DNA of 26,541 nucleotides from a virus. The DNA lies in IMG/VR virus record IMGVR_UViG_3300025168_000558, positions 1 to 26,541 of that record. One strand, given 5' to 3'. The notes under the pieces are model-generated. The model saw only the letters and a program-made list of their open reading frames with translations, ran no database searches and was not told the origin of the DNA. Every line of letters begins with the position of its first letter. Position 1 is the stretch's first letter. Shown in pieces: positions 1 to 17,600 of this stretch. The position numbers and the translations under genes were made by a program.

Positions 1-134
1 ACGTAGCTGCTATCGTGTAGCTCCTGGTCTCGAACTAATTGCTCCACCATGTTTAAGCGGTCACATAGTTCGTCCAAGGTTTTCGATTCCGGTACAAGCT
101 GCGCTGCTTCATCAATGAGAATTCTAACTGTCAT
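1..134 (-). CDS. Partial small gene running off the left edge, unknown function
   Basis: An ATG at 134 opens a leftward frame that stays open for 44 codons to the window edge. The product begins MTVRILIDEAAQLVPESK and continues with a charged, probably helical stretch rich in Glu, Asp and Leu. The ATG lies just downstream of a copy of the AAAGGAAGCAA-type leader element (138-147), which the other left-arm genes also use, and this is the main reason to call it a gene. It overlaps the 3' end of the upstream membrane-protein gene by 11 nt. I do not recognise the family, and the C-terminus is outside the window. Confidence 0.6.
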   Translation of the reverse strand, partial: MTVRILIDEAAQLVPESKTLDELCDRLNMVEQLVRDQELHDSSY

Positions 135-312
135 GGTTTGCTTCCTTCTTGAGTTCTGCTCGAACCCACTTGGCATTTATAGGTTGGTGAATGTCCGGGT
201 TCAACTCCCCGGCAGCATTGACTAACGCCGCACTGAGATATGGACCCAGAAATGGGACTATTGAGAACATGGCTGCAAGGCCGATAAGAACGAACTGAAT
301 CATTAAAAACAT
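124..312 (-). CDS. Small single-pass membrane protein, unknown function
   Basis: This 62-residue protein has a hydrophobic N-terminal segment (about residues 4-33, FLMIQFVLIGLAAMF then a second apolar stretch) and a polar C-terminal tail with Lys, Glu and Arg. It is probably an inner-membrane protein with a short soluble tail. The ATG at 312 has a GGAG about 8 nt upstream. An alternative ATG at 303 forms a TAATG overlap with the stop of the preceding gene and would give 59 residues. The sequence cannot decide between coupling and the SD start. Holin or spanin-like roles are possible by size and topology only; no diagnostic motif is visible. Confidence 0.55.
   Translation of the reverse strand: MFLMIQFVLIGLAAMFSIVPFLGPYLSAALVNAAGELNPDIHQPINAKWVRAELKKEANHDS
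138..147 (-). promoter_or_regulatory. Leader/RBS element, copy 1
   Basis: AAGGAAGCAA on the minus strand, 3 nt before the ATG of the partial left-edge gene. Confidence 0.6.
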
Positions 313-749
313 TCGATGTGCTCCACTAATAAGTTGCCGCCCTCTACGAAGTCGATGTCTGTAGAGTCACCGTCAAAGTGCAGGAATTGAGCGTCACTGA
401 TAATGTACTGAATGGCCATGTGAGCCATTACGAGCTTCTCTGCGGCTTCGGTTAACCACGTGGCTGACATCCACTCGCCACCGCTCATGATAAAGCTGTG
501 GTGTATCTTCAAATGCGTGGCGCCGAGTACGAGCTTTTCACCAGCGGCGTTGGTCCAGGTCAGCTTTAGATCCGTAGGGTAAAGACTGCGCCACAGGATT
601 TCACGGTCACCGGGGATCCGCTTGTCATCGTCGTCGACGGGGTAGCCTTGGGCGTCTGCGATAAAGTTGAGGTCGGCATCGGTCCAAAGTTCCTCGTTTG
701 GGCACCATGTCAGGGTAAAACCACAGTCTGATTGAAATACGAATTCCAT
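303..749 (-). CDS. Conserved-looking hypothetical protein, 148 aa
   Basis: An acidic, mixed alpha/beta protein with many Trp and Asp residues (ELWTDADLNF, DDDDKR, GGEWMSATWL). I see no signal peptide, membrane segment or recognisable catalytic motif. The ATG at 749 overlaps the integrase stop as TAATG and is preceded by the AAAGGAAGCAA leader element at 753-763, so this start is well supported. It is probably co-transcribed with the integrase and the downstream membrane protein. Its function is unknown. Confidence 0.65.
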   Translation of the reverse strand: MEFVFQSDCGFTLTWCPNEELWTDADLNFIADAQGYPVDDDDKRIPGDREILWRSLYPTDLKLTWTNAAGEKLVLGATHLKIHHSFIMSGGEWMSATWLTEAAEKLVMAHMAIQYIISDAQFLHFDGDSTDIDFVEGGNLLVEHIECF

Positions 750-1684
750 TATTTGCTTCCTTTCAAGAGTGGATGGTTTTCTGCCATCTGCTCTTTGTCT
801 AAGTAGTGCTTGATGCTCTCAACTGATTTGTGACCTGTCACCGCCATGATCTCACCGAGTGAGACCCCGGCCTTGGATGCCCAGGTGATGAACCCGGCTC
901 GCGTACTGTGGGGGCTGAAGTCTGAGACTTGAAACCCGCACTTGGTAAGTACACGCTTAAAGATTGCATCGTAGCCGCGCTTAGATAGTGGCCTATCGGT
1001 GATGTTGTCACTCTTTGAAATTGGCTTCCAAAGCGGGCCGGATGTTATTTCCGACCTTCGGAGCCATTCCATCAAGTGGGTAGAAGGTGCCAATGGTACG
1101 CTTAAATCACCAGGGGCGCCGGGTAAAAACTTGCGACGCAAGGTCACAGAGTTTTTCTCAACAACGTCTATCCAAATCCTATCGAAATCGACTACAATGT
1201 TCTCGACGGTAAGATTCAGCAATTCGGCTTTACGGCTAGCAGTCGCAAAGATAACGCTAAACAAAGCTTTATCTCTGCAATCACGCAATGAGCCGGAATC
1301 CAGAGACGATAAGACGCGCTCCACATCCCGGAGCATAAACGCTTTCTTGGTATCAATAGCCCGGTGTGCATGCTCTCGCTTGATACCGTCCAACACGTCA
1401 CGAACTATCTGACCGTTAAGTGATGGCATCCAGTCGATGCACCCGCAATAGGCTTGGTTGATTTTAGAACGTGAGTAGCCGCTGGAATGCAGCACGGCCA
1501 AGTAATCGCAAAGACTCACGGGAACCGCGTCTCTACCATTATCCACTAGCCATTGCTCGAACTGGGCGACGTTGACCCGATACGAATCGACCGTTCCAGG
1601 TGCTTTCTTTTGGGCCGCGAGTCGAGATGCTAACGGACTTAGACCGCTACCATCTGCCACAAACGGCAATACTTTTGCTGTCAT
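749..1684 (-). CDS. int: Tyrosine recombinase / phage integrase
   Basis: This 311-aa protein has the two-domain layout of phage integrases. The N-terminal part (about residues 15-100) looks like a SAM-like core-binding domain, with KAPGTVDSYRVNVAQFEQWL typical of its first helices. The C-terminal catalytic domain shows Arg151 in ATASRKAELLNL, His259 and Arg262 in HSTRAGF, His285 in TGHKS and the probable nucleophile Tyr294 in IKHYL, so the key residues appear complete. Members of this family cut and rejoin attP and attB through a 3'-phosphotyrosine intermediate. The ATG at 1684 follows the leader element at 1688-1698. The gene reads leftward between a 37-aa gene and the 148-aa gene. It points to a temperate life style. 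No att core could be identified by eye, and no excisionase was recognised. Confidence 0.93.
   Translation of the reverse strand: MTAKVLPFVADGSGLSPLASRLAAQKKAPGTVDSYRVNVAQFEQWLVDNGRDAVPVSLCDYLAVLHSSGYSRSKINQAYCGCIDWMPSLNGQIVRDVLDGIKREHAHRAIDTKKAFMLRDVERVLSSLDSGSLRDCRDKALFSVIFATASRKAELLNLTVENIVVDFDRIWIDVVEKNSVTLRRKFLPGAPGDLSVPLAPSTHLMEWLRRSEITSGPLWKPISKSDNITDRPLSKRGYDAIFKRVLTKCGFQVSDFSPHSTRAGFITWASKAGVSLGEIMAVTGHKSVESIKHYLDKEQMAENHPLLKGSK
753..763 (-). promoter_or_regulatory. Leader/RBS element, copy 2
   Basis: AAAGGAAGCAA ahead of the 148-aa gene; it lies inside the 3' end of the integrase gene. Confidence 0.65.
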
Positions 1685-1687
1685 GTT

Positions 1688-1698
1688 TTGCTTCCTTT
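1688..1698 (-). promoter_or_regulatory. Leader/RBS element, copy 3
   Basis: AAAGGAAGCAA ahead of the integrase ATG, in the 16-nt gap after the 37-aa gene. Confidence 0.65.
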
Positions 1699-1700
1699 AC

Positions 1701-1814
1701 TTAGCTATTCAGCCATTCATCAAATGTTTTGATAGGTTCACCCGTTGTCGAGTCAATCCCGTTGCCATCGTCGACACATCGGACGTAATTCTCATAGCGT
1801 TCTCTCAAAGTCAT
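1701..1814 (-). CDS. 37-aa small protein upstream of integrase
   Basis: A short frame from ATG 1814 to TAA 1703-1701 encodes MTLRERYENYVRCVDDGNG followed by a tail ending TFDEWLNS. It is polar and probably folds as two short helices. The evidence that it is real is its start context: the same GGAAGCAA leader element (1818-1827) that precedes the integrase and other left-arm genes, at the same distance from ATG. Its stop lies 16 nt before the integrase start. A small DNA-binding excisionase-type role is suggested only by position; no helix-turn-helix is obvious. Confidence 0.55.
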   Translation of the reverse strand: MTLRERYENYVRCVDDGNGIDSTTGEPIKTFDEWLNS

Positions 1815-1817
1815 CAC

Positions 1818-1827
1818 TTGCTTCCTT
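1818..1827 (-). promoter_or_regulatory. Leader/RBS element, copy 4
   Basis: AAGGAAGCAA ahead of the 37-aa gene; it is the main support for that start. Confidence 0.6.
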
Positions 1828-1850
1828 CCCTACGATTAGACGTAAGTTAA

Positions 1851-1871
1851 GCCGAGGATCTGACTCTCGGC
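1851..1871. repeat. Inverted repeat GCCGAG / CTCGGC ahead of the integrase operon
   Basis: GCCGAG (1851-1856) is complementary to CTCGGC (1866-1871), with a 9-nt loop. In the leftward transcript this hairpin lies between the terminator at 1872-1905 and the ribosome-binding site of the 37-aa gene. CTCTCGGC (1864-1871) also pairs perfectly with GCCGAGAG at 1896-1903, so alternative folds are possible. Confidence 0.5.
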
Positions 1872-1905
1872 ACCAAGAAAGCCCTCGGGATGGGAGCCGA
1901 GAGCT
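1872..1905 (-). terminator. Rho-independent terminator after the Gp88-like operon
   Basis: Read leftward, AGCTCTCGG (1905-1897) pairs with CCGAGGGCT (1888-1880) over 9 positions, one of them a G-U pair, with an 8-nt loop. TTCTTGGT follows. It lies 28 nt beyond the stop of the 41-aa gene. The downstream tail GGCTTTCTTGGTG (1883-1871) is identical to that of the terminator near 3950. Confidence 0.7.
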
Positions 1906-1932
1906 TTAAAGGGGCTTATTTCTTCCAGGGGC

Positions 1933-2058
1933 TTAGGCTTTGACTATCACCGCCCAATTGCATCCAATTAGAGTGATACGAACCAAACCATAATAACTAT
2001 GGCGCTCAATATAGCGTTCTGCATCCCGTCTAGAGCGTGATTTGTAGAGAATACTCAT
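1933..2058 (-). CDS. 41-aa small basic protein
   Basis: The ATG at 2058 overlaps the stop of the Gp88-like gene as ATGA, and a strong GGAGGTGG sequence lies a few bases upstream, so I start here. A longer upstream frame exists but would mean initiating inside the neighbouring gene. The product begins MSILYKSRSRRDAERYIERH and ends LIGCNWAVIVKA: a basic helical half, then a beta-like hydrophobic half. Translational coupling suggests it is made together with the Gp88-like protein. The family is unknown. Confidence 0.6.
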   Translation of the reverse strand: MSILYKSRSRRDAERYIERHSYYGLVRITLIGCNWAVIVKA

Positions 2059-2975
2059 GCCGCCACCTCCGCCGATACGAGACGCAATGAGGGACGCAGG
2101 ACGAAGCCAGAAGTGTCCCGCTTCGCAGGTCCGAGGGGTTTCAATGCAACGATGCAACCATTTCTAGGATCCAACCACCTACGGTCGTCAGCAGTCCCAT
2201 CTATTACGCGATAGCCTGACCACGAACCGGACGCGGTCACACGTTTCCAAGTAGCCTTGTCAAATACGATTGCCACATTGCCGCCATCGTCCAAGGTCTT
2301 GATCGCGTGTCGGTGGTTCGTTTCAGAGCGTGAGAATGTGAGGGAATAATTCTCAGGTAAAGACCGCTTAAATCTTCCAGGAAGCTTAGTGTAATCGTAG
2401 TAAATCACATCAGGGAACATGCTAAACATCCAACGCTCGCGAGATTCCCACACGATATCACTTGTTCCATTCGGACGGATTGCGACTTTGTAAGACCGCT
2501 TAGACAGTCGATCGATCATATCAAAGAACGTGAGAGCAAAGATTGCCCGATGTTCAAAGTAAAGCTTAGTGCGTTTGATCCGTCCTGCTTTGACGTTGAC
2601 AATTGATCCGTGCCCCGATTCGTATAAGCACGATTTAGTGCAACCCTCAGACCGTCCATGGCAGACCTCAGTTCCACTGAGATCACCGGGTGCAAAGTGC
2701 ATCACGAACGATTTCAAGACGCCCTTTGATGCTTTATTTGAGAGCATCATTTTGTGCTGACCTTCCGAGGTGAAAAAGTCCGGCAGGGTCTTCAGTCGCA
2801 AAAGTCGACGGGCTATCTGTCGGGCTTCCTTGACATCGCTGCGATCTGGCACCCGGCCAGATTTGAGGATGTTATAAGCCCGTTCAAAACGGGCCGGATC
2901 ATATTTCACGCGCGCGAGAGTGACGTGATAACGATTGCCATTTTTGGCATAAATAAATTTAGAAGTTTTGGACAT
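2055..2975 (-). CDS. Gp88-like phage protein with conserved Cys cluster
   Basis: This 306-aa protein matches my memory of the phage gene-product-88 family. It carries Cys105, Cys112 and Cys116 in the segment CHGRSEGCTKSC, then AIRPNGTSDIVWE (165-177), which resembles the family's RLNGTSDIPWE, and a C-terminal VIDGTADDRRWLDP block. Members are common in phages infecting many hosts, and their biochemical role is not established as far as I know. The three cysteines suggest metal or Fe-S binding, but that is inference. I chose ATG 2975 because the leader element sits directly upstream (2981-2990); a frame from 3002 would put the element inside the gene. A terminator-flanked gap of 159 bp precedes it, and it is coupled to the 41-aa gene downstream. 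Confidence 0.75.
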   Translation of the reverse strand: MSKTSKFIYAKNGNRYHVTLARVKYDPARFERAYNILKSGRVPDRSDVKEARQIARRLLRLKTLPDFFTSEGQHKMMLSNKASKGVLKSFVMHFAPGDLSGTEVCHGRSEGCTKSCLYESGHGSIVNVKAGRIKRTKLYFEHRAIFALTFFDMIDRLSKRSYKVAIRPNGTSDIVWESRERWMFSMFPDVIYYDYTKLPGRFKRSLPENYSLTFSRSETNHRHAIKTLDDGGNVAIVFDKATWKRVTASGSWSGYRVIDGTADDRRWLDPRNGCIVALKPLGPAKRDTSGFVLRPSLRLVSAEVAA

Positions 2976-2980
2976 AAGTT

Positions 2981-2990
2981 TTGCTTCCTT
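2981..2990 (-). promoter_or_regulatory. Leader/RBS element, copy 5
   Basis: AAGGAAGCAA ahead of the Gp88-like gene; it decides the start at 2975 over 3002. Confidence 0.65.
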
Positions 2991-3059
2991 GCTTGGCTGC
3001 AATCAATCACTAGGACCGATCGCGGGTTTGAATATTGAGCCCCTGGAAAGATTTAAGGA

Positions 3060-3078
3060 TATTTGAGCGCGTCAAATA
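3060..3078. repeat. Palindromic dyad TATTTGA-N5-TCAAATA
   Basis: The perfect 7-bp arms TATTTGA and TCAAATA flank GCGCG in the gap upstream of the Gp88-like gene, downstream of the terminator at 3106-3129. The position and symmetry would suit an operator. No good sigma70 promoter could be aligned with it. Confidence 0.45.
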
Positions 3079-3105
3079 GCCGTTGAAACACCCAGGGTGA
3101 GAGGG

Positions 3106-3129
3106 AAAAGCCCCTATTGAGCAGGGGCT
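3106..3129 (-). terminator. Rho-independent terminator after the NLxRGxWS gene pair
   Basis: AGCCCCT (3109-3115) and AGGGGCT (3123-3129) form a perfect 7-bp stem with a 7-nt loop. In the leftward transcript the stem is followed by TTTCCC. It starts 5 nt after the stop of the 116-aa gene, so it most likely ends that operon. Confidence 0.7.
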
Positions 3130-3134
3130 GACCA

Positions 3135-3485
3135 TTAACGGATCCACATCTCGGATGTATCAGTGAAGTAAGCTTCCGACGCTGTATCAATTCGGGTACC
3201 GTCAGAGAGCTGAAAGTATCGATGACCTTTACGAGGGTTAAAGTAGACCCGTTGCCAACCTGAGAGGTCAGGCTGTGGCGTGTCAACGATGGTTTCCTCG
3301 CTGTGGATATAGGCGAACACCTTGCGCTTCTCACCTTCGAGACATGCCTCGAATTGCTTGCCACTCGGTTGTTTAAACTTGATATCAAAGCAATGCACCG
3401 ACGATGCCGGTTGGACCTTGTTGGTCTCTTTAGGAGTGACCGACCAATCACCTCTGCTTAGATTCTTATGGACCTTGGATCTCAT
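3135..3485 (-). CDS. NLxRGxWS-family phage protein, shorter paralogue (116 aa)
   Basis: The N-terminus has HKNLSRGDWSV at residues 6-16, matching YRNLTRGGWSL at the same residues of the gene just upstream. A second shared block is KRKVFAYIHSEE (53-64). A third, VYFNPRKGHRYF (about 80-91), resembles a V-x-YNP segment I associate with small phage proteins of this type. The ATG at 3485 overlaps the upstream stop as ATGA, with no separate leader element, so translation is probably coupled. It is likely a small cytoplasmic beta-rich protein of the early region. No function is known to me. Confidence 0.7.
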   Translation of the reverse strand: MRSKVHKNLSRGDWSVTPKETNKVQPASSVHCFDIKFKQPSGKQFEACLEGEKRKVFAYIHSEETIVDTPQPDLSGWQRVYFNPRKGHRYFQLSDGTRIDTASEAYFTDTSEMWIR

Positions 3486-3919
3486 GCGTAGACCTCGCAG
3501 GTTTCATTGAATACGAGCGTCAACGTTGGAGCGATACGCGAGACATCAAACGGACGTGATGACCCGTCGAGAGGATTAATCAAAACGAGCTGACCTGCTT
3601 CAAGGTCAAGTGACAACGTGCCGAGGTGAACCAATGCACCATAGACATTGCCAACAAGGGGCTGACCTTCTGTGACGTCACCGGCAACGTATGCGATGAC
3701 CTCGCGACCATACTTGTTAGGTAGTGCAAGGTTCTTAACAATACGAGCGCAACCGCTCGCAATGGTGCTTGGGTTGTTCGTGACAACGTTGGTCATAAGT
3801 AGACCGCCGGTGTGGTGTGATGGTCCTGTGAGCTTTGAGGCATAGCCCTTGCGATCAAGTTTGGCATCAATGAGAGACCATCCACCTCGGGTTAGGTTTC
3901 GATAAATTGCTTGTGTCAT
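3482..3919 (-). CDS. NLxRGxWS-family phage protein, longer paralogue (145 aa)
   Basis: The protein opens with YRNLTRGGWSL (residues 6-16) and has GREVIAYVAGDV (71-82), both aligning with the paralogue downstream. The middle is an insertion rich in Thr, Asn and Gly. The C-terminal part is beta-like (GTLSLDLEAGQLVLINPLDG) and unlike its neighbour. The ATG at 3919 follows the leader element at 3923-3933. The pair probably arose by duplication followed by divergence of the second half. The function is unknown. Confidence 0.7.
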   Translation of the reverse strand: MTQAIYRNLTRGGWSLIDAKLDRKGYASKLTGPSHHTGGLLMTNVVTNNPSTIASGCARIVKNLALPNKYGREVIAYVAGDVTEGQPLVGNVYGALVHLGTLSLDLEAGQLVLINPLDGSSRPFDVSRIAPTLTLVFNETCEVYA

Positions 3920-3922
3920 AGG

Positions 3923-3933
3923 TTGCTTCCTTT
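3923..3933 (-). promoter_or_regulatory. Leader/RBS element, copy 6
   Basis: AAAGGAAGCAA ahead of the 145-aa paralogue. The identity with copy 7 extends upstream to ACAACAAAGGAAGCAA. Confidence 0.65.
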
Positions 3934-3945
3934 GTTGTGAGTTGA

Positions 3946-3973
3946 CACCAAGAAAGCCACTCTGAGGTGGCTT
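3946..3973 (-). terminator. Terminator-like hairpin between the 95-aa gene and the paralogue pair
   Basis: AAGCCAC (3954-3960) and GTGGCTT (3967-3973) form a perfect 7-bp stem with loop TCTGAG. Leftward it continues as TCTTGGTG. The 13-nt tail GGCTTTCTTGGTG is identical to the one at 1883-1871. Only about 26 nt separate it from the next start codon, which leaves little room for a promoter. Confidence 0.6.
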
Positions 3974-3997
3974 AAATGGATGTATGAGGGGCGTTGA

Positions 3998-4285
3998 TTA
4001 GCGGTGGACTGCAACGTTAGGATCATGGCGAGTCAGTCCGTATCGGTGCCATCGGGCTCCGTATCCGTACAGCGGGGATCCTTCGCACTTATTGCTCTCG
4101 TAGGGACAAATAGGCGCACCGTTATCGTCTCGGGTAAAAAAGGTAATTCTGTCAGAATAGCCCCGATTGCCCATCACATACATTGTGATGCACCATGCCT
4201 GAGCTATTTTGAGATAAGTAATTGCCGAATAGGTAAAAACGTTTCTCATAGTTGGATATGCGTGTTTCCAGAACTTAACTTGCAT
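3998..4285 (-). CDS. 95-aa hypothetical protein, first gene of the leftward arm
   Basis: The ATG at 4285 is preceded by the leader element at 4289-4299. The product is rich in Tyr, Arg and Trp. Its first half is partly apolar (TYSAITYLKIAQAWCITMYVMG, about residues 18-39) and could be a membrane segment, though it contains Lys. Its second half has two cysteines in PICPYESNKCEG, possibly metal binding. As the promoter-proximal gene of the leftward arm it may be expressed first after infection; that is inference. The opposite strand is also open over this interval, but it lacks a comparable start signal. Confidence 0.55.
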   Translation of the reverse strand: MQVKFWKHAYPTMRNVFTYSAITYLKIAQAWCITMYVMGNRGYSDRITFFTRDDNGAPICPYESNKCEGSPLYGYGARWHRYGLTRHDPNVAVHR

Positions 4286-4288
4286 TGA

Positions 4289-4299
4289 TTGCTTCCTTT
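4289..4299 (-). promoter_or_regulatory. Leader/RBS element, copy 7
   Basis: AAAGGAAGCAA ahead of the 95-aa gene, at the left edge of the divergent region. Confidence 0.65.
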
Positions 4300-4373
4300 G
4301 TTGTTGTCGCGGTCAATCCCGCTCATTCTCAGAGTCTCACATCATATGTCATCATTCAATATCAATGTGCATG

Positions 4374-4390
4374 CTGTAGGTTATGTACAG
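4374..4390. repeat. Dyad CTGTA-N7-TACAG, possible operator
   Basis: CTGTA (4374-4378) and TACAG (4386-4390) are inverted repeats. The outer CTGT...ACAG resembles an SOS box, but the spacing is 9 where the E. coli LexA site has 8. It overlaps the terminator-like hairpin at 4378-4401, so only one of the two can form in RNA. Confidence 0.4.
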
Positions 4391-4401
4391 TAACCTTTTT
4401 T
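4378..4401 (+). terminator. Rightward terminator-like hairpin in the divergent region
   Basis: AGGTTA (4378-4383) pairs with TAACCT (4391-4396) around a 7-nt loop and is followed by five more T residues. The stem is short, so efficiency is uncertain. No gene on the plus strand lies immediately upstream, so it would end a short rightward leader or antisense RNA, or act as an attenuator. Confidence 0.45.
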
Positions 4402-4463
4402 GGAGGGTGGATCGTCGCTACTATTCACTCTAAAGACCGCCTAAGTGCCTGTAATTGCGCGCA

Positions 4464-4480
4464 GGGGGGGGCCACCCCCC
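4464..4480. repeat. G-run/C-run hairpin
   Basis: Eight G followed by CCA and six C can form a 6-bp all-GC stem. The flanks CGCA (4460-4463) and TGCG (4483-4486) could extend it past a GG bulge. There is no T-tract on either side, so it is not a standard intrinsic terminator. Confidence 0.5.
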
Positions 4481-4598
4481 GGTGCGATTGTGCGTGTGAA
4501 TGTGTATTGCTACATCTGACTTTTTACCCCGATTTGCCTTTGATCTTGCCATTTATATGTCAACATGTAACATGGTGGCTTAACAAAGGAGGTCACCC

Positions 4599-4820
4599 AT
4601 GGGTGCCAAAAAGAAAACAGCTAAGAAGAAGACGGCGGTCGTCAAAAAAACACCAGTCATCTCTCAAAGCGCCGAGAAAACAATGATTACGCTTCCAGAA
4701 GGCTCACTGGTGAAAATTAAGGCCTGTGCCGAGTCAGAAGGCCTAAGTCAGTCAGCCTGGATACGGCGCCTCATCTTTCTAGGCCTTGAAGAGAACTATA
4801 GACGTCGAGGATTACTGTAA
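4599..4820 (+). CDS. Ribbon-helix-helix (CopG/Arc-type) DNA-binding protein with Lys-rich tail
   Basis: In this 73-aa protein residues 28-66 read as a ribbon-helix-helix fold: the beta strand TMITLPEG, helix VKIKACAESEG, then LSQSAWIRRLIFLGLEEN. Such proteins dimerise and bind operators through the beta ribbon. The first 18 residues (GAKKKTAKKKTAVVKK) form an unstructured basic tail like those of histone-H1-type proteins and probably add nonspecific DNA contact. A near-consensus SD, AAAGGAGGT, precedes the ATG. As the first rightward gene beside the divergent control region it is the best candidate in the window for a transcriptional switch protein. No other repressor or Cro-like gene is visible. 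Confidence 0.75.
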   Translation: MGAKKKTAKKKTAVVKKTPVISQSAEKTMITLPEGSLVKIKACAESEGLSQSAWIRRLIFLGLEENYRRRGLL

Positions 4821-5170
4821 TGGGATTCTCAAGCTACGAATGTAACCTATGCGGCAAGTCCATCCTGGCCACTTACGCTTTAGACCGCTACTCCGATGTT
4901 CCCGAGCGCTATACAGAGTCCGTGTGGATTCCGAAGCCAGGAGCAACGCCAGTCATCGGCACTTTTGACGGTTATGGCAACGTCACCACGGAAGACGGTG
5001 AGGAAGTTGACGTTTACGAGCAGATGGCCCGAAAGGATGGCAAATGGCACGAGCCGATGGTCCATCACAAAGACTGTTGGGAGAACGCAGGCAGTCCAAC
5101 CATACAGTTCGAGCCATCGGAGCGAGCGGAGGACCAGGGCTACTTTATTGATGACAGGGTCTATGTATGA
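4820..5170 (+). CDS. Small probable zinc-binding protein
   Basis: A 116-aa acidic protein with Cys8-x2-Cys11 (YECNLCGKS) near the N-terminus and HHKDCW (His82, His83, Cys86) further on, a spacing that would suit a zinc ribbon or treble-clef site. The part between is rich in Gly, Asp and Glu. The ATG at 4820 overlaps the preceding stop as TAATG, with GAGGA 8 nt upstream. Its stop overlaps the HIT gene start as ATGA. The function is unknown. Because it is coupled to a DNA-binding protein and a HIT protein, a regulatory or nucleic-acid role is plausible but unproven. Confidence 0.65.
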   Translation: MGFSSYECNLCGKSILATYALDRYSDVPERYTESVWIPKPGATPVIGTFDGYGNVTTEDGEEVDVYEQMARKDGKWHEPMVHHKDCWENAGSPTIQFEPSERAEDQGYFIDDRVYV

Positions 5171-5565
5171 GCGCCGAGTGCCCGTTCTGCACCCTACCTG
5201 AAAACTATTCGTTGGCGTTCTACGATTACGCCTACGCTCGCTATGATTCCTACCCGGCCAGTCCTGGCCACATGCTCCTCCTACCAAAAAGACACGTTAG
5301 CACCTGGTCGGAACTTACCGGCCCAGAAAAGACAGACCTACTAGATATGGTGGAATACGCTCGGATCACGCTTGACCGTGACGTGCGACCTGACGGCTAC
5401 AACGTTGGTTTCAACGATGGTAAAGCCGCTGGGCAAACTGTTATGCATTTTCACATCCACGTCATCCCACGTTTTGACGGCGACACGCCTGATCCACGGG
5501 GCGGGGTTCGAGGATGCATTCCAAATAGAATGAATTATATTGATGACGAAATTCTCAGCCACTGA
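5167..5565 (+). CDS. HIT-family protein (histidine-triad nucleotide hydrolase/transferase)
   Basis: This 132-aa protein shows the histidine triad H94-F-H96-I-H98-V-I, with His96 the expected catalytic residue. It also has Cys5-x2-Cys8 and His43, which together with His94 form the usual structural zinc site of bacterial HIT proteins. PASPGHMLLLPKRHV and YNVGFNDGKAAGQTVMHFH are classic family blocks, and GGVRGCIPNRMNY closes the domain. HIT enzymes act on nucleotide phosphoramidates, dinucleoside polyphosphates or related compounds; the substrate cannot be told from sequence. The length is normal for a bacterial HIT protein and the catalytic set looks intact. It overlaps its upstream neighbour by ATGA and its downstream neighbour by 23 nt. 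Confidence 0.9.
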   Translation: MSAECPFCTLPENYSLAFYDYAYARYDSYPASPGHMLLLPKRHVSTWSELTGPEKTDLLDMVEYARITLDRDVRPDGYNVGFNDGKAAGQTVMHFHIHVIPRFDGDTPDPRGGVRGCIPNRMNYIDDEILSH

Positions 5566-6007
5566 AGATATTAAAGACGTTGCACGACTAATTCACCGTG
5601 GGGGCTTACCAGACGAATGGGAGGACACCTCGGAGGCCATCAGTGACCGCGAGGATGCCCCAGGTTGGGCGCGGGACATCATAAGCAACGCCAAGGTCCA
5701 GCTAGCTCTGTATCTCCTCCCAGAGGACATGCAACTCACGATGCTAGCCGACGAAACGATTGATGAAATTAAAACGAACTGCAAACAGTTCTTCATGAAA
5801 AAACACGCTTACCGTCTCACGCAATCAATGCATGCTGACGGTTGGCAACAGTACCAGTCCGTCGTGAACACGAAGTCTAAGAAACAAGCCGAGCAAGATG
5901 GCGTAAAGCACAAACGTTACCGGTACGCCTGTCACTTCTGGGTGGCGCCGAGTGGTGAGATTGTCCTAGGCAAAGTGAAGCTAGAGGGTAAATTTATTCC
6001 GGCCTAA
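5543..6007 (+). CDS. 154-aa hypothetical protein, last gene of the first rightward cassette
   Basis: I start at ATG 5543; the codon before it is TTG, which also could initiate. The product is mainly helical and charged, with blocks DEWEDTSEAISDREDAPGWA (about residues 24-43) and YRYACHFWVAPSGEIVLGKVKLEGKF near the C-terminus, the latter beta-like. No catalytic motif or membrane segment is seen. It overlaps the HIT gene by 23 nt and has no strong SD, so it probably depends on translation of the HIT gene. The function is unknown. Confidence 0.6.
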   Translation: MTKFSATEDIKDVARLIHRGGLPDEWEDTSEAISDREDAPGWARDIISNAKVQLALYLLPEDMQLTMLADETIDEIKTNCKQFFMKKHAYRLTQSMHADGWQQYQSVVNTKSKKQAEQDGVKHKRYRYACHFWVAPSGEIVLGKVKLEGKFIPA

Positions 6008-6035
6008 CAACGGACGTCCAGATCTTAATCCATTA

Positions 6036-6050
6036 ATCTCAATCTGAGAT
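6036..6050. repeat. Dyad ATCTCA-N3-TGAGAT, possible operator
   Basis: Perfect 6-bp arms around ATC, in the gap ahead of the packaging operon. TAAT and ATTA flank it imperfectly. It could be a regulator-binding site for the late operon. Confidence 0.35.
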
Positions 6051-6131
6051 CATTAGTTCTCCCAAATATTCCCAATCCGCGATACAAGTTAAGCCTACTC
6101 CCAAAGTAGACCACGCGGGGCTGGGGTTTGG

Positions 6132-6142
6132 TTGCTTCCTTT
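6132..6142 (-). promoter_or_regulatory. Isolated copy of the left-arm leader element
   Basis: AAAGGAAGCAA on the minus strand, identical to the left-arm copies, but with no ATG within the usual distance and no credible leftward gene. It sits 27 bp upstream of the small-terminase start. Confidence 0.55.
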
Positions 6143-6168
6143 CCTCAGTCCCATTCTTAGGTGACACC

Positions 6169-6675
6169 ATGCCGCGTCGTAGTGACAGCAAAAAGCTGTC
6201 TGTTCAATTCCACTCTGCTGGTGGTAAATTAGGTGACGAAGAAGCCTTGGAGAAGGTGCGTGGCGAACTGCGCCATGAAGCCCGTCGCATTAAGATAAAC
6301 GACAAGCTTGCCATGGACGGCGGCGCCTCGATTGTACCTGATGTACACTCCCTGGTTTCCAACGCTTATTTTATTATCGACTCCGAACTACGAACGCTTC
6401 GGCAAATCAGCTCTACATCCTACGGCCTTGATAAGAACCAGTCTGCAAACTTTGCGGCTATTGTGCGTTCTATTCAAACACTCTCAAACGTTGAGAAAGA
6501 TTTGAAAGACCAAAACGCACTCGAGGCTCTACCGGATGACGAGCTACGCAAGAAAGCTTCTGAGGCATTTCTAAAACTCGACGGTCGTATACAGCGCACG
6601 ATTAAAGAAGAAGCTGGGCTATTGGCGACACGCCGAGCAAAAGAAGCATACGAGAAAGTTGGCGACGATGGATGA
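6169..6675 (+). CDS. terS: Probable terminase small subunit
   Basis: A 168-aa, charged, nearly all-helical protein that opens the packaging operon. Residues 1-45 are basic (MPRRSDSKKLS, RHEARRIK) and could contact DNA. The C-terminal half has long helices (NFAAIVRSIQTLSNVEKDLKDQNALEALPDDELRKK region, about residues 109-143) that look like the oligomerisation part and the LxxLxDEEL-type block of small terminases. Small terminases recognise pac or cos sites and regulate the large subunit. No clear winged or helix-turn-helix motif is visible, so the call rests mostly on position and composition. TTAGGTGA lies upstream of the ATG. The 3' end overlaps the GNAT-like gene by 8 nt. Confidence 0.55.
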   Translation: MPRRSDSKKLSVQFHSAGGKLGDEEALEKVRGELRHEARRIKINDKLAMDGGASIVPDVHSLVSNAYFIIDSELRTLRQISSTSYGLDKNQSANFAAIVRSIQTLSNVEKDLKDQNALEALPDDELRKKASEAFLKLDGRIQRTIKEEAGLLATRRAKEAYEKVGDDG

Positions 6676-7387
6676 TTTAAAATCAGACCTACGCCACAAG
6701 TTCGGCGTTAACGTTTTTCTTAGCGAAGACGATAGGAACACCGAAACCTCACGGCCCTATATTCCTGAAGAAGTTGAGGACGCACCCAACATTCTTATTA
6801 GGCCAGCAGATGCTAACGATGCGGCATTTATCCTTGATACCTGGTTAGACGGACACGCGAGACAAAATCGCAATCAATCCTCAATCAGTCTGTTCAAAAT
6901 GCATCGACCAATCGTGGAGAACCTTTTAGAGACGTCGTACACATATGTTGCTTGTAATCAGGCTCTCACAGATCAGATCTACGGATATGTCTGTGCGAAG
7001 CGTCAAGAATTTGACGTTTTGAATAAAAAGCGCAGCCTGCTCATTGTACATTGGGCACACGTAAAGAGTGTCTTTCGCACGATGGGAATAGCAACGGCGA
7101 TTCTAGATCGTGTGTACGGTTATCGTAGAGGGGAAAAGGTTCTTCACACCCATCAAGGCAGAATCATTAAAGACCTAAAGAAGGGTCACAATCTTGAGTA
7201 CGCACCAAAATGCCAGACAGCAGAAGGAAGTGAACTATTTATCACGCATTTTGCTGCTGAAAGAATCAAACACTACGGAGGCCATCATGGCAATAAGCGA
7301 AATTCATCTAAAACGGGACACAAAAGAAGTAAGACACCAGACACGTCTGAAACACGGGTCGAAGGTGAGCCTGGAGCTTCGGGGTGA
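6668..7387 (+). CDS. GNAT-like acetyltransferase-fold protein of the packaging module
   Basis: I start at ATG 6668; the frame extends three codons further to a TTG. Residues 42-60 (ILIRPADANDAAFILDTWL) resemble the first strand and helix of GNAT folds. HWAHVKSVFRTMGIATAIL (about 128-146) carries the RxxGIA acetyl-CoA-binding loop, and IYGYV (104-108) is the matching strand. The core corresponds to a family I recall near terminase genes of short-tailed phages. The enzymatic substrate is unknown, and it may instead be structural. The last third (about 200-239) is Lys-, Ser- and Gly-rich, probably disordered, and overlaps the next gene in another frame by 101 nt. Confidence 0.7.
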   Translation: MDDLKSDLRHKFGVNVFLSEDDRNTETSRPYIPEEVEDAPNILIRPADANDAAFILDTWLDGHARQNRNQSSISLFKMHRPIVENLLETSYTYVACNQALTDQIYGYVCAKRQEFDVLNKKRSLLIVHWAHVKSVFRTMGIATAILDRVYGYRRGEKVLHTHQGRIIKDLKKGHNLEYAPKCQTAEGSELFITHFAAERIKHYGGHHGNKRNSSKTGHKRSKTPDTSETRVEGEPGASG

Positions 7388-11119: not shown

Positions 11120-11983
11120 ATGAGTGAAGAAAACGAAGTTTCGGTTGAGCCAACCCCCCAACCGGAACAAGGGGTCTCAGAAGTCGTTTCATCTTCTGAG
11201 GCTCCGATTGAGCTTGAACAAACCCCGGCAAATCTTGCGACGAACTTTGCGGCTCTTTCGCGACGTGAGCGTGAACAACACTTGCAAGCACGAGATCTGC
11301 GACAGCGAGAAGCCCAAATCCAGGAACAAATGGCGCGTGTAGCAGAATACGAGCAAAACCTAAGTCTTGCAAAAGAGAACCCCCAAGAGTTCTTAAAGCA
11401 AGCTGGCGTAAACATGGCCGAGGTTATCAACAAAGAAGCATCTGGTGAAGTCGCAGAATCGACACAGCTACGAAGTGAGCTAGAGCGCCAACGCCAAGAG
11501 CTGACAGATCTTAAGTCACGCGAGCAAGAACGAGTGGACCAAGCTGAAACAAGTCGTCTGCATGGTTTAAGAAATTCTTATGTTGATAAAATCACCGATT
11601 GGGTGGATAATCGTGGTGACGAGTTTGAACTTGTCAAAAAAGCCAATGCGTATGAGACGGTGTATCAAGTTATTCAAAACGAATACAACGCCTCAGGTAA
11701 TGACATTGGATTCGAGCAGGCTTGCAAGGTGGTTAATGACCACTACGCAGGCGAGCTTAAGCGGTTTTCGGACACCCGCACGTTGAAACAATTGTACGAC
11801 GCTTCGCCAGAAGCAACCCCGACACCAAGTCCTGCTGCCATGGAAGGTCCGACAAAAACTGTCGCACCATCAGTTAAAACATTAAGTAATACGCAGGCTG
11901 TGGCCACAACGTCCACGGAACCTCGCGTTTTAACGCACCAAGAACGCCTCAGGAAATTCGCTGAAGCGATCAAATGGCAGTAA
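11120..11983 (+). CDS. Capsid scaffolding protein
   Basis: A 287-aa, mostly helical protein just before the major capsid gene. It has an acidic, Pro- and Gln-rich N-terminus (1-40), coiled-coil-like stretches (about 47-80 and 114-145, rich in Glu, Gln and Arg), a Pro/Thr-rich linker (about 233-265) and a basic terminal helix, THQERLRKFAEAIKWQ, of the kind that binds coat protein in known scaffolds. Scaffolds guide prohead assembly and are then released or degraded. No protease gene is visible nearby, so exit without cleavage is possible. AAGGA lies 6 nt before ATG. Confidence 0.8.
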   Translation: MSEENEVSVEPTPQPEQGVSEVVSSSEAPIELEQTPANLATNFAALSRREREQHLQARDLRQREAQIQEQMARVAEYEQNLSLAKENPQEFLKQAGVNMAEVINKEASGEVAESTQLRSELERQRQELTDLKSREQERVDQAETSRLHGLRNSYVDKITDWVDNRGDEFELVKKANAYETVYQVIQNEYNASGNDIGFEQACKVVNDHYAGELKRFSDTRTLKQLYDASPEATPTPSPAAMEGPTKTVAPSVKTLSNTQAVATTSTEPRVLTHQERLRKFAEAIKWQ

Positions 11984-11994
11984 AGGATTAAGTC

Positions 11995-13341
11995 ATGCCA
12001 ACGTCAACTTTAGGACACGGTACTATTGGAGGTAGCGCACTCAGCTCCGCTACAGGTACAGGTGTTACACTCGATATGTCGACCGTCCAAGACGGTCTAA
12101 AAGAACTCTATGGACGCGCCAACTGGCTAGCGGCTCTCTATGAGCACGACGGGCTATTCACGCGGATTCCAAAGTTTGAAGGCTTTACTGGTAGTTATTA
12201 TCCAGTGGTTGTTCAATACGCTCCGAACTCCCGACGTAGTCAGGATTTTAGCCGAGCACAAGATAACACCTCATCATTCGAAGTTGAGAAATTCCTAGTA
12301 CACCGTGTTCGTGATTATGCGTTCGCAACTTTAGACACAGAAACAATTCTTTCGACTCGCGGCGATGCTGGTGCATTCGCCAGTTACATGGACGTTGAAA
12401 TTAGCGGCGCACGTTACGCGCTTCGTCGTTCACTTGCTCGACAGTGCTACGGTGATGGTTCAGGTAAAATTGGTGTTATCACTAGTTCTACTATCGCTGA
12501 TGGTAAGACTACAATTGTTCTAACCAAGGCAAACGACATTGTGAACTTTGAGGTTGGTCAACAGCTTGAGGTTATTGTTAACGCTGACTACGGTTCAGTG
12601 CAGACTGGATATCTTACAGTTGAATCAGTAAACCGTGAAGCTGGCAGCTTTGTGGCCGATGACTCTGGTAGCTTTGACATGGACAACGCAGTTATCGGTG
12701 GCGGGAAAGGTCGTATCTTTATGCGCGGCGATTCCTCTGCAAGTGTTGCAGCTCATCACCGCATGAGCGGTCTTGATGCCTGGATTCCGGCAACGGCACC
12801 AACTTCATCAGACAGCTTTTTTGGGGTCAATCGGTCAACCGACACCACGCGCCTCGCTGGGCACCGTTTTTCGGGAGCCACCACAGACGTATATCACGCA
12901 TTCGTAAGCGCGAGTGAGCGTCTGGGTCGTGAGGGTGCCAAGCCTGACCATATCTTTACAGACTACTCAACCTACACATCGTTGATGAAGGAAGTTACAG
13001 CGGCAGGTGCCGGGTATTCCAGTGACACCAACAAGGGTGTTAAGATTGATATTGGTTTTGGCAAGACGCTTGAGCTTGGCTTCACCAACATCGTGATTCA
13101 CTTGCCAACGGGTCCAATTCAAGTTGTGCCAGATGCTGACTGTCCAGTTAATACAGCCTATATGATTAAGCTGTCAGACTGGGAATTGGCATCACTTGGT
13201 ATGTGTCCACAGATACTTGACCTAGATTCCAATGCTGCTCTCAGACGTTCAGATCGTGACAGTTTGGAAGTGAGACTAGGGGCCTATTCGAACGTAATCA
13301 CCAAGAATCCGGGTAACCAATGTCGGATTGATTTTAGCTAA
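11995..13341 (+). CDS. Major capsid protein
   Basis: A 448-aa protein following the scaffold. TVQDGLKELYGRANWLAALYEHDGLFTRIPKFEGFTGSYYPVVVQY matches the N-terminal arm and E-loop region of HK97-fold coat proteins of short-tailed phages. Residues of about 157-247 form a beta-rich segment (KIGVITSSTIADGKTTIVLTK, NFEVGQQLEVI, FMRGDSS) that looks like an inserted domain of the kind known in P22 coat. The C-terminus (LEVRLGAYSNVITKNPGNQCRIDF) is beta-rich. AAAGGA lies 7 nt before ATG. The stop overlaps the next start as TAATG. Length and order support the call. Confidence 0.9.
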   Translation: MPTSTLGHGTIGGSALSSATGTGVTLDMSTVQDGLKELYGRANWLAALYEHDGLFTRIPKFEGFTGSYYPVVVQYAPNSRRSQDFSRAQDNTSSFEVEKFLVHRVRDYAFATLDTETILSTRGDAGAFASYMDVEISGARYALRRSLARQCYGDGSGKIGVITSSTIADGKTTIVLTKANDIVNFEVGQQLEVIVNADYGSVQTGYLTVESVNREAGSFVADDSGSFDMDNAVIGGGKGRIFMRGDSSASVAAHHRMSGLDAWIPATAPTSSDSFFGVNRSTDTTRLAGHRFSGATTDVYHAFVSASERLGREGAKPDHIFTDYSTYTSLMKEVTAAGAGYSSDTNKGVKIDIGFGKTLELGFTNIVIHLPTGPIQVVPDADCPVNTAYMIKLSDWELASLGMCPQILDLDSNAALRRSDRDSLEVRLGAYSNVITKNPGNQCRIDFS

Positions 13342-13556
13342 TGAATATTGATCCTAAACGAGACGCGGAACTCATTCTTGAGAAACTTCGGTTAACCAAG
13401 GATGAACCTTCTGTCTCAAACCAGCGAGAAGTCGCTTTAGACAGTGCCATGCGCTCTGCGTTTGATGCTGCTAAAGGTGAGGACTATCGCCGGTTCGGAA
13501 GTGCATTAATTGATTTGTTAGACATTCATTCTTCCGGCGGTAGTTTGGATAGCTAG
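13341..13556 (+). CDS. 71-aa helical protein after the capsid gene
   Basis: Starts by TAATG overlap with the capsid stop, without a strong SD. The product is charged and helical (DPKRDAELILEKLRLTKDE and ALDSAMRSAFDAAKGEDYRRFGSALIDLLDI) with a Ser/Gly tail. It could be a minor head protein. Coupled expression would tie its amount to capsid protein. The function is unknown. Confidence 0.65.
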   Translation: MNIDPKRDAELILEKLRLTKDEPSVSNQREVALDSAMRSAFDAAKGEDYRRFGSALIDLLDIHSSGGSLDS

Positions 13557-14608: not shown

Positions 14609-17600
14609 TGGCACTTAAGAAACAGACATTATCGCTCAGTTTCGAGAAAGGCTTGAATCAGAAAGCCTCAGACCGTGTGCTTAACGTTCCGCACATGGCC
14701 GACATACAAAATGGTCGCATGGAGAAGTCTGGCGAAATTAGACGCCGTGCAGGACTAGAACCGCTACAAAACGACAACCTACCGAACAACGGTAAATTTG
14801 ATGAAGTTTTAGCATCGACCTCATACAAGATTCCGACCGTATCAAACGTTTCGTCTTATCGTGACGGGTTGGCTTGGATGGACGGTAAACATCTTTACCA
14901 GAACCTAGGCGATAACGCTTATTCGCGACAGGGCGTCTGTGACCCTGTTGTCATGAATAACCAAGTGATTCGGGATGACCGGGGGATTACTCAATCTCGC
15001 CCTGAACTTTGTAAAATAACTAATGCAACCTACGGTAATTTTATATGCGCGGTTTGGTACGAGATTGACTGCACATCGCACGGCGCAACTCAGGATAATT
15101 ACTTTACTGAATACAGTGTATACGCCCAGCTTTATGATGCTGACACGGATGTTGAAGTTGGACGCAGACAACTTGTCGACACTTGCCGGTTCGAGACTCT
15201 TGGTATTTTTGAGGATGAGCGGGCTTACCTTGCGCCAAAACCTAAAGTCCTAGCGCTCGAAAATAAATTTGTCATTCTGTACAACTCGGTCGATGTCACT
15301 AACACTGGTTACACCCTTGGTGACGGTTCCTACCCTGTGCTGCTAAATTATCGATTGATCGATATAACGGCTTCAAATTGGCAACTTGGCGACATTAAAC
15401 CCTCAACTTCAACATCGCTCGTGGCGTTACATCCAACCGCTGCTTGGGACGCTTGCAGCTTTATTCGGGCCGTTGACACTCCAGTTGAAGGCATTGCAAT
15501 TTTTTGGCAGACAAGCACTGAAGGCAGCGAATCTAAATCCTTTAAGCTTAGAGAAGTTGTTTTAGACGGCACGTCATTAAGTTTTACCAGCCAACGCACC
15601 TTTGACATTGCGCAAAGTGCGCAGGCCCGTTTCGGTACAAGTGTGGCAGAGTATGGCTTAAACAACCCACAGGCTTACGGTGTTTTTGTTCGTCACTTTC
15701 ATCCAAACCTAGGACACGCAAACCCGGTTAACCGGGATGACCTATCCCACTATGTCATCGGATTTAATGCTTTAGACACCACAATACGAGGACGATTCGC
15801 CGTTGTCGACGCAGCCACAGGTACCTTATCCCTTGAAGGCTCAGTCATTAACGCACCTGACAACGAAGGCATGCTTAACGGAACAGCCATTCTTGACCCT
15901 AGCGCTTCACCTTCTACGCATACGCGAGTCTACTACGTCACAGACACAAAAGTTGACGCACGAGCACCTAATGTGACTACGTTGCGTTCTATTAAGTTTA
16001 CTATAGCTGACGCCACAGCGGCGCACTCAGTTCTTGCATACAACACCGGTTTGACCAGTGACCCGTGGACTTATGACGACGAAGTTTATTTTATGGGAAG
16101 TGAGTGTATAGCGCAGCAGGCAGGGACAAGCTGGGACGCGTCCTACCAAAACTTTTCTGAAGGCTCTACGTATATTTTTAGAGACACTTTTAGCGAAGCG
16201 CCCGGTAGTAAAAACTATAAACGAGATCGCTGTATGCCTGTGGCGAAGACCGCCGAGGGTGATGTTGGCGCTAATCCATTTACCGACTTTTTTCTTTTGC
16301 AGCGCGATTTTTCAAAGGTCGATAACGGCGAATTAGCATCGACAATGTACTACGGCGCCTCAGCGGTTATCGATGGCAAAACACCTGATCAAAAATTAAT
16401 TGGTAGCAGTCGCTGGGCTCCGTTGCTTGTCGGTGAGGAGGTAACGTTTGCAGCCTCAATTGCGACCGTACAGCATAAACCTAGACGTGAACTGCCTACA
16501 GTTGAAACAAACAATAGTTTGCTGATTGGTGGTGGCTACCTTAAGACCTTTGATGGTCAAGCAGTTCACGAAAACGGTTTTTTTCGAGCACCACAAATTT
16601 TTGCCACGCCTACATACGCAGCCGCTTCAAACAGTTCTGCTATAAACGGCATGACTGCCCGCATAACGACAGGAGTTCGGACCTACACAGCGATATATGA
16701 GTTTGTAGACGCTGCTGGCAACTTGCACAGGTCAAAGCCTAGCGACCCTATCACTGTGGATATAACGGCAGATAATAATCAAGGCTGGATAAAAGTTAAA
16801 GTTTACACTTACAATCATTCTCTACGCTACAACGAAAATGTCAGAATAGTTTTGTATCGCAGCACTGCTACGCAAGCTACTCATTACAGAATCGGTGACA
16901 TAGCTAACAATTGGGATAGTCCGTCAGTTGAGTTTCTAGACGTATACGCTGATGCCGACATTTTTCCAGTAGAGAATCCTAAGGCAGCACACGAAGTCCT
17001 CTACAGCGACTTTGAAAAAGCTAATGGTTGTTTAGGTTCAGTTACTGATCTTGTAATTCACAAAGACCGCTTAATGTTCGCAACAGCCGACAACAGAGTT
17101 CATACTTCTAAACCAACTGTAAACACACTTGCAACTGAGGTGTTTACGGATGCAGAATTCCAATTTGGGCAACTCGAAGGCGGCAGAGAAAAAGTTTACG
17201 GGATTGAGACGACTGGTGATCACCTTGTCGTATTCACACCAGAGAACGTCTTTGTAATAAGCGGCGAAGGACCAGACGCAAACGGTGGGACGGCAAGGTT
17301 CACAGAGCCACGATTACTTGTAAAAGGGCAAGGTGCATTAGAAGGAACTATTCATATCAATTCACCGCGTGGAATTCTTTATCAAGCAGAACGTGGTTTT
17401 TATAACATCAATCGTGAGCTGCAATCTGAATACATAGGGGCGCCGGTCGAAGACCTAGGCATATACAGAGGGCTTGCTACCGAACTAGATGATTCAAAAC
17501 ACGAGCTGTACATACCTCTTGGTGACCGCTTAGACGGTTCGAGTGACCCAGCAGGTTACTCTACAGTTCTTGTTTACAATTATTTCTTTGACGCTTGGAG

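What the first reader, a model, noticed from the sequence alone, without database searches (positions are those of the whole stretch)
134..6142. Eight near-identical copies of AAAGGAAGCAA, seven of them leader elements of leftward genes
Copies at 138-147, 753-763, 1688-1698, 1818-1827, 2981-2990, 3923-3933, 4289-4299 and 6132-6142. The first seven lie just before ATG codons at nearly constant distance. Ribosome pairing explains only AAGGA; conservation of the following AGCAA is not needed for a Shine-Dalgarno site, and rightward genes do not use it. This suggests a shared post-transcriptional control site for the left arm (for example a host or phage RNA-binding protein; GGA-core binders such as CsrA are one idea), or genes acquired as modules with their leader.
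Basis: partly seen in the sequence, partly recalled or inferred. Interest (0 to 1): 0.6.

Follow-up and report, generated by a model that had tools for sequence, protein, structure and literature searches.

The report
Phage antisense hairpin matching shared leaders
Seven genes in one arm of this phage share a near-identical leader because a small RNA hairpin encoded on the opposite strand carries the exact complement of that leader in its loop, so one RNA could switch off translation of all of them together.

Summary
AAGGAAGCAA occurs eight times on the minus strand and never on the plus strand (0.1 expected). Seven copies sit 8-10 nt before leftward ATGs. It is more than a Shine-Dalgarno site: a standard 16S tail pairs with these leaders no better than with other genes.

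The eighth, "orphan" copy explains the rest. On the plus strand it is the 16-nt loop of a 10-bp hairpin (6117-6152) just before the rightward late genes; the loop reads UUUGGUUGCUUCCUUU, the complement of the leader element. The hairpin recurs at the same place in related phages. Its stem covaries (80/80 standard pairs in 8 sequences), and all nine non-Watson-Crick pairs are G-U on this strand but would be A-C on the other, so the RNA is the rightward one. Relatives encode a second structured RNA with the same anti-leader stretch. One contig outside the lineage carries the same hairpin plus a matching leader.

Best reading: a phage antisense-RNA regulon that blocks ribosome binding at many left-arm genes. 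Pairing and repression are inferred; there are no expression data.

K1 mycobacteriophages show the same layout: their single reverse-oriented start-associated sequence is the loop of a stable hairpin.

The parts
138..148 (-). Leader element (GAAGGAAGCAA) of the leftward ORF that starts at 134 and runs off the contig
753..763 (-). Leader element of leftward ORF 303-749 (148 aa, no family match)
   Evidence: families
1688..1698 (-). Leader element of the tyrosine integrase gene 749-1684
   Evidence: PHROG integrase, E 1.7e-24
1818..1828 (-). Leader element (GAAGGAAGCAA) of a short leftward ORF, 1701-1814 (37 aa)
2981..2991 (-). Leader element (CAAGGAAGCAA) of leftward gene 2055-2975 (306 aa, GP88 family PF17338 / phrog_1617)
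3923..3933 (-). Leader element of leftward gene 3482-3919 (145 aa); 13-nt perfect match AAAGGAAGCAACC to the complement of the hairpin loop
4289..4299 (-). Leader element of leftward gene 3998-4285 (95 aa)
6117..6152 (+). Antisense hairpin RNA: stem 6117-6126 with 6143-6152, loop 6127-6142 (UUUGGUUGCUUCCUUU)
   Evidence: fold -21.9 kcal/mol, z -4.15 on the + strand; -11.8, z -1.71 on the - strand; covariation; model hit E 1.1e-11, a training sequence
6132..6142 (+). Anti-leader sequence UUGCUUCCUUU inside the loop (the finding's eighth copy, read on the other strand)
6169..6675 (+). First gene after the hairpin (168 aa, no family match); its homologues follow the hairpin in the relatives; start of the rightward run that includes terminase, portal and capsid

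Best explanation
The repeated leader is the target site of phage-encoded antisense RNA. A hairpin in the transcript leader just before the rightward late genes (window 6117-6152, + strand) exposes UUUGGUUGCUUCCUUU in its loop; this base-pairs with AAAGGAAGCAA, which overlaps the Shine-Dalgarno sequence of seven leftward genes (integrase, GP88-family gene and small unknown genes), hides it from the ribosome and lowers their translation together. When rightward transcription rises, the left arm would be turned down (an early-to-late or lysogeny-to-lysis switch). Relatives add a second structured RNA with the same anti-leader stretch, between the second integrase and the primase genes. Shown: the repeats, the hairpin, its strand, its covariation, its conserved position and its complementarity. 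Inferred: that it is transcribed, that it pairs in trans, and that the effect is repression.
For: (1) Orphan copies recur at the same place, before homologues of the 168-aa gene, in G002, G003, G004, G005, G007, G008, G009 and G011. (2) Stem: 80/80 standard pairs in 8 distinct sequences; all 9 departures from Watson-Crick are G-U on the rightward strand and would be A-C on the leader strand; dealing the 3' arms out anew among the sequences gives 56 on average and reaches 80 in 5e-5 of permutations; 7 of 10 pairs change on both sides while the loop letters stay almost invariant. (3) A model built from five hairpins finds three group-B hairpins it was not trained on, at the syntenic place, at E 0.0005-0.001. 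(4) Own loop with element leaders: mean -16 to -19 kcal/mol, against -6 to -9 for other left-arm genes and -8 to -9 for rightward genes; a 16S tail with element leaders only about -6 to -7. (5) Second RNA in G004, G007, G008, G009, with a homologue in L112; its 3' hairpin has 48/48 standard pairs, 9 of them G-U, in four distinct sequences, and its 5' hairpin loop UUGCUUGUGC is complementary to GCACAAGCAA in G007 and G009 leaders. (6) Extended matches: 13 nt in the window, 16 nt in G007, 14 nt in G004 and 15 nt in G009 with RNA 2. (7) G026, outside the lineage, has the same 22-nt loop segment in its own 13-bp stem and a leader ACAAAGGAAGCAAAATG in the same operon.
Against: No RNA-seq, promoter or terminator supports a discrete transcript; consensus scans of the hairpin region found neither, so the hairpin may only be part of a long mRNA. 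Complementarity of loop and leaders is partly circular, because the loop was found as a copy of the motif. Loop-leader coevolution is weak: group A leaders fit group A loops better (13 of 16), but group B leaders do not prefer group B hairpins (9 against 14 of 27). The leaders are only half accessible in predicted folds. The second RNA lies outside this contig. The host is unknown.
Confidence: 0.74

Rival explanations
1. The element is a favoured ribosome-binding site that spread with copied leaders; the orphan is a coincidence.
For: It overlaps the Shine-Dalgarno position; AAAGGA pairs with a canonical 16S tail; the spacing is constant.
Against: Element leaders pair with the 16S tail no better than other genes, and in most genomes worse (about -6.7 against -8 to -10 kcal/mol). 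AGCAA is conserved without 16S pairing. The orphan is a covarying hairpin on the other strand in every relative that covers the site, plus a second structured RNA.
Confidence: 0.12
2. The element is bound by an RNA-binding protein (a CsrA/Rsm-like or phage translational repressor), with the orphan as a decoy hairpin on the leader strand.
For: GGA core; on the leader strand the orphan would put GGA in a loop, as CsrA prefers (family knowledge).
Against: Leader-strand stems have 9 A-C mismatches against none on the opposite strand; the window's leader-strand fold is weak (z -1.71 against -4.15). Ten conserved bases exceed a GGA-type site.
Confidence: 0.06
3. The pairing acts in the other direction: abundant left-arm mRNAs, through their leaders, bind the hairpin loop and control the late-operon leader (translation of the 168-aa gene, or transcription beyond it).
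For: The hairpin ends only 16 nt before the ATG of the late gene at 6169 and this position is conserved.
Against: RNA 2 and the G026 hairpin are not followed by that gene. Seven or more conserved leaders are easier to explain as targets than as redundant regulators.
Confidence: 0.07
4. The hairpin is a transcription terminator or RNA-processing site, and its similarity to the leaders is incidental.
For: GC-rich stem-loop between genes; in G026 it follows a gene end.
Against: No U-tract; none found by the terminator scan. The loop is 16-17 nt long and nearly invariant while the stem varies freely, the reverse of a terminator.
Confidence: 0.01

Closest known systems
Start-associated sequences (SAS) of cluster K mycobacteriophages (GGGATAGGAGCCC; PMC3203893)
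   Same: Many near-identical copies at the ribosome-binding position of non-structural genes; conservation beyond 16S pairing; one copy in the opposite orientation away from gene starts. In K1 phages that copy is the loop of a stable hairpin.
   Different: Different sequence, host and phage type; about half of the SASs have an upstream inverted repeat (ESAS), not seen here; Keshu (K3) has SASs but no such hairpin. SAS function is described as undetermined.
c4 antisense RNA of phages P1/P7 (Rfam RF01695) and Sar RNA of P22
   Same: Phage-encoded RNA that silences phage genes by antisense pairing (c4: PMC8198154 citing Citron and Schuster 1990; Sar and the detail that pairing covers ribosome-binding regions are from general knowledge).
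   Different: No Rfam match here; c4 and Sar act on one operon, this RNA would act on many separate leaders that share one element.
alpha-r14 / cuckoo RNAs of alphaproteobacteria (PMC10746234)
   Same: Hairpins with an ultraconserved anti-Shine-Dalgarno motif (CCUCCUCCC) in unpaired regions while the stems vary; predicted to target many mRNAs.
   Different: Host-encoded, different loop, generic anti-SD; here the loop matches a dedicated extended element found on a subset of phage genes.
icaR 3'-UTR anti-SD motif of Staphylococcus aureus (PMC3868564)
   Same: An untranslated part of an mRNA pairs with a Shine-Dalgarno region and blocks initiation; resembles the G026 layout (leader at the operon start, hairpin at its end).
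   Different: One gene, short motif, no family of targets.
CsrA/Rsm GGA-binding system
   Same: GGA core near the ribosome-binding site of several genes.
   Different: Wrong strand for the hairpin; no protein evidence.

Membership tests
Ordinary Shine-Dalgarno site | Conservation limited to what pairs with the 16S tail | tested here: not met
   AAGGAAGCAA conserved; AGCAA does not pair; 16S-tail pairing no stronger than at other genes. Host 16S not available, canonical tail assumed.
Start-associated sequence (works like) | Multi-copy extended motif directly upstream of start codons of non-structural genes | tested here: met
Start-associated sequence of cluster K (membership) | Consensus GGGATAGGAGCCC and upstream 17-bp inverted repeats | tested here: not met
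   Different sequence; no upstream inverted repeats seen in the leaders.
Phage antisense RNA (works like c4/Sar) | Structured phage RNA with an unpaired stretch complementary to ribosome-binding regions of phage mRNAs | tested here: met
   (by sequence and covariation only)
Phage antisense RNA (works like c4/Sar) | The RNA is made and represses translation of its targets | not testable with these tools
   No expression data for this uncultivated phage.
c4 antisense RNA, Rfam RF01695 (membership) | Match to the family covariance model | tested here: not met
   No Rfam match in the window or in the two RNA regions at E up to 5 apart from one irrelevant hit.
CsrA/Rsm-type control | GGA in a hairpin loop on the leader strand | tested here: not met
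   The structure is supported on the opposite strand: 0 against 9 mismatches.
Intrinsic terminator | GC-rich stem followed by a U-tract | tested here: not met
   one search found none; sequence

The most novel reading that the evidence does not exclude
Start-associated sequences of phages are in general target sites of phage-encoded antisense hairpin RNAs: a one-to-many translational switch found independently in this marine-type podovirus-like lineage, in an unrelated phage contig (G026) and in K1 mycobacteriophages, and so a new class of phage regulon.
Probability: 0.35. Interest if true: 0.85.

Novelty: new variant of a known kind. Interest (0 to 1): 0.72.

Why it matters
Antisense RNAs such as c4 silence one phage operon. 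Here one or two small RNAs seem to address a whole set of separate phage genes through a dedicated shared leader, a translational regulon. It also offers a concrete, testable answer to the role of start-associated sequences, open since 2011: in K1 mycobacteriophages such as Adephagia, which can be grown, the only reverse-oriented copy is the loop of a long hairpin, so deleting or mutating that hairpin would test it directly.

Tried and rejected
Nucleotide search of phage records: no match. Protein searches of cultured phages: only distant terminase hits under 25% identity and no capsid hit, so no host. Genome-contig scans with terminase and portal alignments: no prophage. The GP88-family protein gave no viral contigs. 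Portal relatives at about 30-42% identity lack the element, so it is lineage-limited. Rfam gave nothing useful. Consensus promoter and terminator scans were uninformative. MAFFT misaligned the two loop types by one base, so stems were compared by hand-set arms and then with a 16-nt-loop-only alignment. L096, L100 and L104 matched loop patterns but have no matching stem and were taken as chance. A strict loop-leader coevolution test was inconclusive. Microbacterium phage AnnaSerena (cluster EF, 10 SAS-like copies) has no reverse copy in a hairpin loop; Keshu (K3) has none either, so the antisense layout is not universal among SAS phages. Adephagia's region has 177 similar mycobacteriophage records. 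TM4 was not in the collection. No paper read reports the hairpin-SAS link; the library does not hold most subscription papers, such as the ZoeJ study.
Full report
WHAT WAS CHECKED. The window is a 26,541-base uncultivated virus contig. Exact AAGGAAGCAA occurs 8 times, all on the minus strand, against 0.10 expected. Seven copies precede leftward ATGs at 8 nt (six) or 10 nt (one) from AAGGA. Target genes include a tyrosine integrase and a GP88-family gene; the others are small and unknown. Three leftward genes with ordinary leaders, and all rightward genes, lack the element.

RELATIVES. Terminase, portal and capsid scans of viral contigs found relatives at 59-91% identity. All those with left-arm sequence carry the element (core AAGGAAGC) before leftward ATGs. 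More distant portal relatives (about 30-42%) do not. A typical extended form in relatives is (A/G)CAAAGGAAGCA-ATG.

THE ORPHAN COPY. In the window and in G002, G003, G004, G005, G007, G008, G009 and G011 one copy has no start codon and lies just before homologues of the same rightward gene (window 6169-6675). Each lies inside an inverted repeat. In the window, the plus strand folds as GGGGCUGGGG-UUUGGUUGCUUCCUUU-CCUCAGUCCC, -21.9 kcal/mol, z -4.15; the minus strand gives -11.8, z -1.71. Over eight distinct sequences, including G026, all 80 stem pairs are standard on the rightward strand, nine of them G-U; on the leader strand those nine would be A-C mismatches. Dealing the arms out anew among the sequences keeps 56 pairs on average and all 80 in 5e-5 of permutations. 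In the five sequences with the same loop type, 7 of 10 pairs change on both sides (0 of 500 shuffles reach this; related sequences inflate that test) while the loop is nearly invariant. A covariance model of those five detects three group-B hairpins it was not trained on, at the syntenic place, E 0.0005-0.001; G007's hairpin stays below threshold, although its stem is perfect. So this is a structured RNA on the rightward strand whose conserved loop is the complement of the leaders.

PAIRING. Own-loop duplexes with element leaders average -16 to -19 kcal/mol; other left-arm genes average -6 to -9, rightward genes -8 to -9, and random contexts about -7. A canonical 16S tail gives only -6 to -7 with element leaders, no better and usually worse than with other genes. 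Longest perfect matches reach 13 nt in the window (gene 3482-3919) and 16 nt in G007. These numbers are partly circular, because the loop was recognised as a copy of the motif; the independent support is the structure, its strand and its conserved position.

A SECOND RNA. G004, G007, G008 and G009 carry another copy without a start codon, between the second integrase gene and the primase genes, again on the strand opposite to the genes around it. It folds as a 5' hairpin, a linker UGUGAUUGCUUCCUUU and a 12-13 bp hairpin. L112, whose primase is 40% identical, has a homologue (read by eye from the sequence). The 3' hairpin has 48/48 standard pairs with nine G-U in four distinct sequences. Its 5' loop UUGCUUGUGC is complementary to GCACAAGCAA, the second half of several G007 and G009 leaders. 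In some predicted folds the linker is partly paired. The window ends before the place where this RNA would lie.

OUTSIDE THE LINEAGE. An 18-base loop pattern found contig 3300032218_002291 (L097, G026), with no recognised relative of the window's structural genes. It carries the 22-nt segment GGGTTTGGTTGCTTCCTTTCCC in its own 13-bp stem after a gene for a VWA-like protein, and the leader ACAAAGGAAGCAAAATG before the upstream MoxR-like ATPase gene of the same operon (the two gene names are my reading of the sequences, not a search).

LINK TO START-ASSOCIATED SEQUENCES. Cluster K mycobacteriophages have 11-19 copies of GGGATAGGAGCCC at start codons, conserved beyond 16S pairing; Anaya, Adephagia, Angelica and CrimD have a single copy in the opposite orientation not associated with a gene start, and the authors left open whether an RNA or a protein binds (PMC3203893). 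In Adephagia that copy (about 58,694) is exactly the 10-nt loop CCUCCUAUCC of a long hairpin in the gp92-gp93 gap, -33.7 kcal/mol, z -6.2. Anaya and Niklas keep the loop with changed stems; read by eye, their outer ten pairs include G-U pairs on the anti-SAS strand, though total fold energies do not separate the strands. Ekdilam's homologous hairpin has a two-mismatch loop; Keshu (K3) has SASs but no such hairpin, and AnnaSerena (cluster EF) has none. So the layout recurs in K1 but is not universal.

MECHANISM. Most likely the rightward transcript presents the loop, which pairs with the leaders and blocks ribosome loading, turning down left-arm genes as the late operon is expressed. Transcription, trans pairing and the sign of the effect are inferred. 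Alternatives (plain RBS, protein site, reversed direction, terminator) are weighed above. Closest known mechanisms are c4-type phage antisense RNAs, anti-SD hairpins of alphaproteobacteria (PMC10746234) and the icaR 3'-UTR (PMC3868564). None has a dedicated multi-gene phage leader as target, hence 'new variant of a known kind'.

Noticed in passing
L114 38660-38715 (Adephagia JF704105.1, about 58,660-58,715); also Anaya (L115) and Niklas (L116): The single reverse-oriented SAS of K1 mycobacteriophages is the loop of a long stable hairpin between two genes; a possible anti-SAS RNA in a culturable phage.
   Followed up: partly
L097 1823-1858 (minus) and about 4207-4218 (minus): An unrelated phage contig has the same hairpin loop at the end of a MoxR/VWA-like operon and the matching leader at its start.
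   Followed up: partly
L097, upstream of starts at 4206, 5235, 7706 and 8033: A different repeated leader, TACCTACTAA, precedes several gene starts; another start-associated repeat.
   Followed up: no
L071 about 6980-7110; L068 about 11670-11800; L112 about 3380-3450: Second structured RNA between integrase 2 and primase, with two stretches complementary to the leaders.
   Followed up: yes
G007 20359-20583 (+): One rightward early gene in a relative does carry the leader element (AAAGGAAGCAACAATG), an exception to the strand rule.
   Followed up: no
G007 12092-13519 and 15884-16798: Relatives carry two different tyrosine integrase genes in the left arm.
   Followed up: no
window 6018-6055: CAGATCT followed by an imperfect palindrome (ATCTCAATCTGAGAT) upstream of the hairpin is largely conserved in relatives; candidate regulatory or promoter region.
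   Followed up: no
window 5167-5565 and 3135-3485: HIT-domain protein gene and a relative of mycobacteriophage L5 gp82 (PF25735).
   Followed up: no
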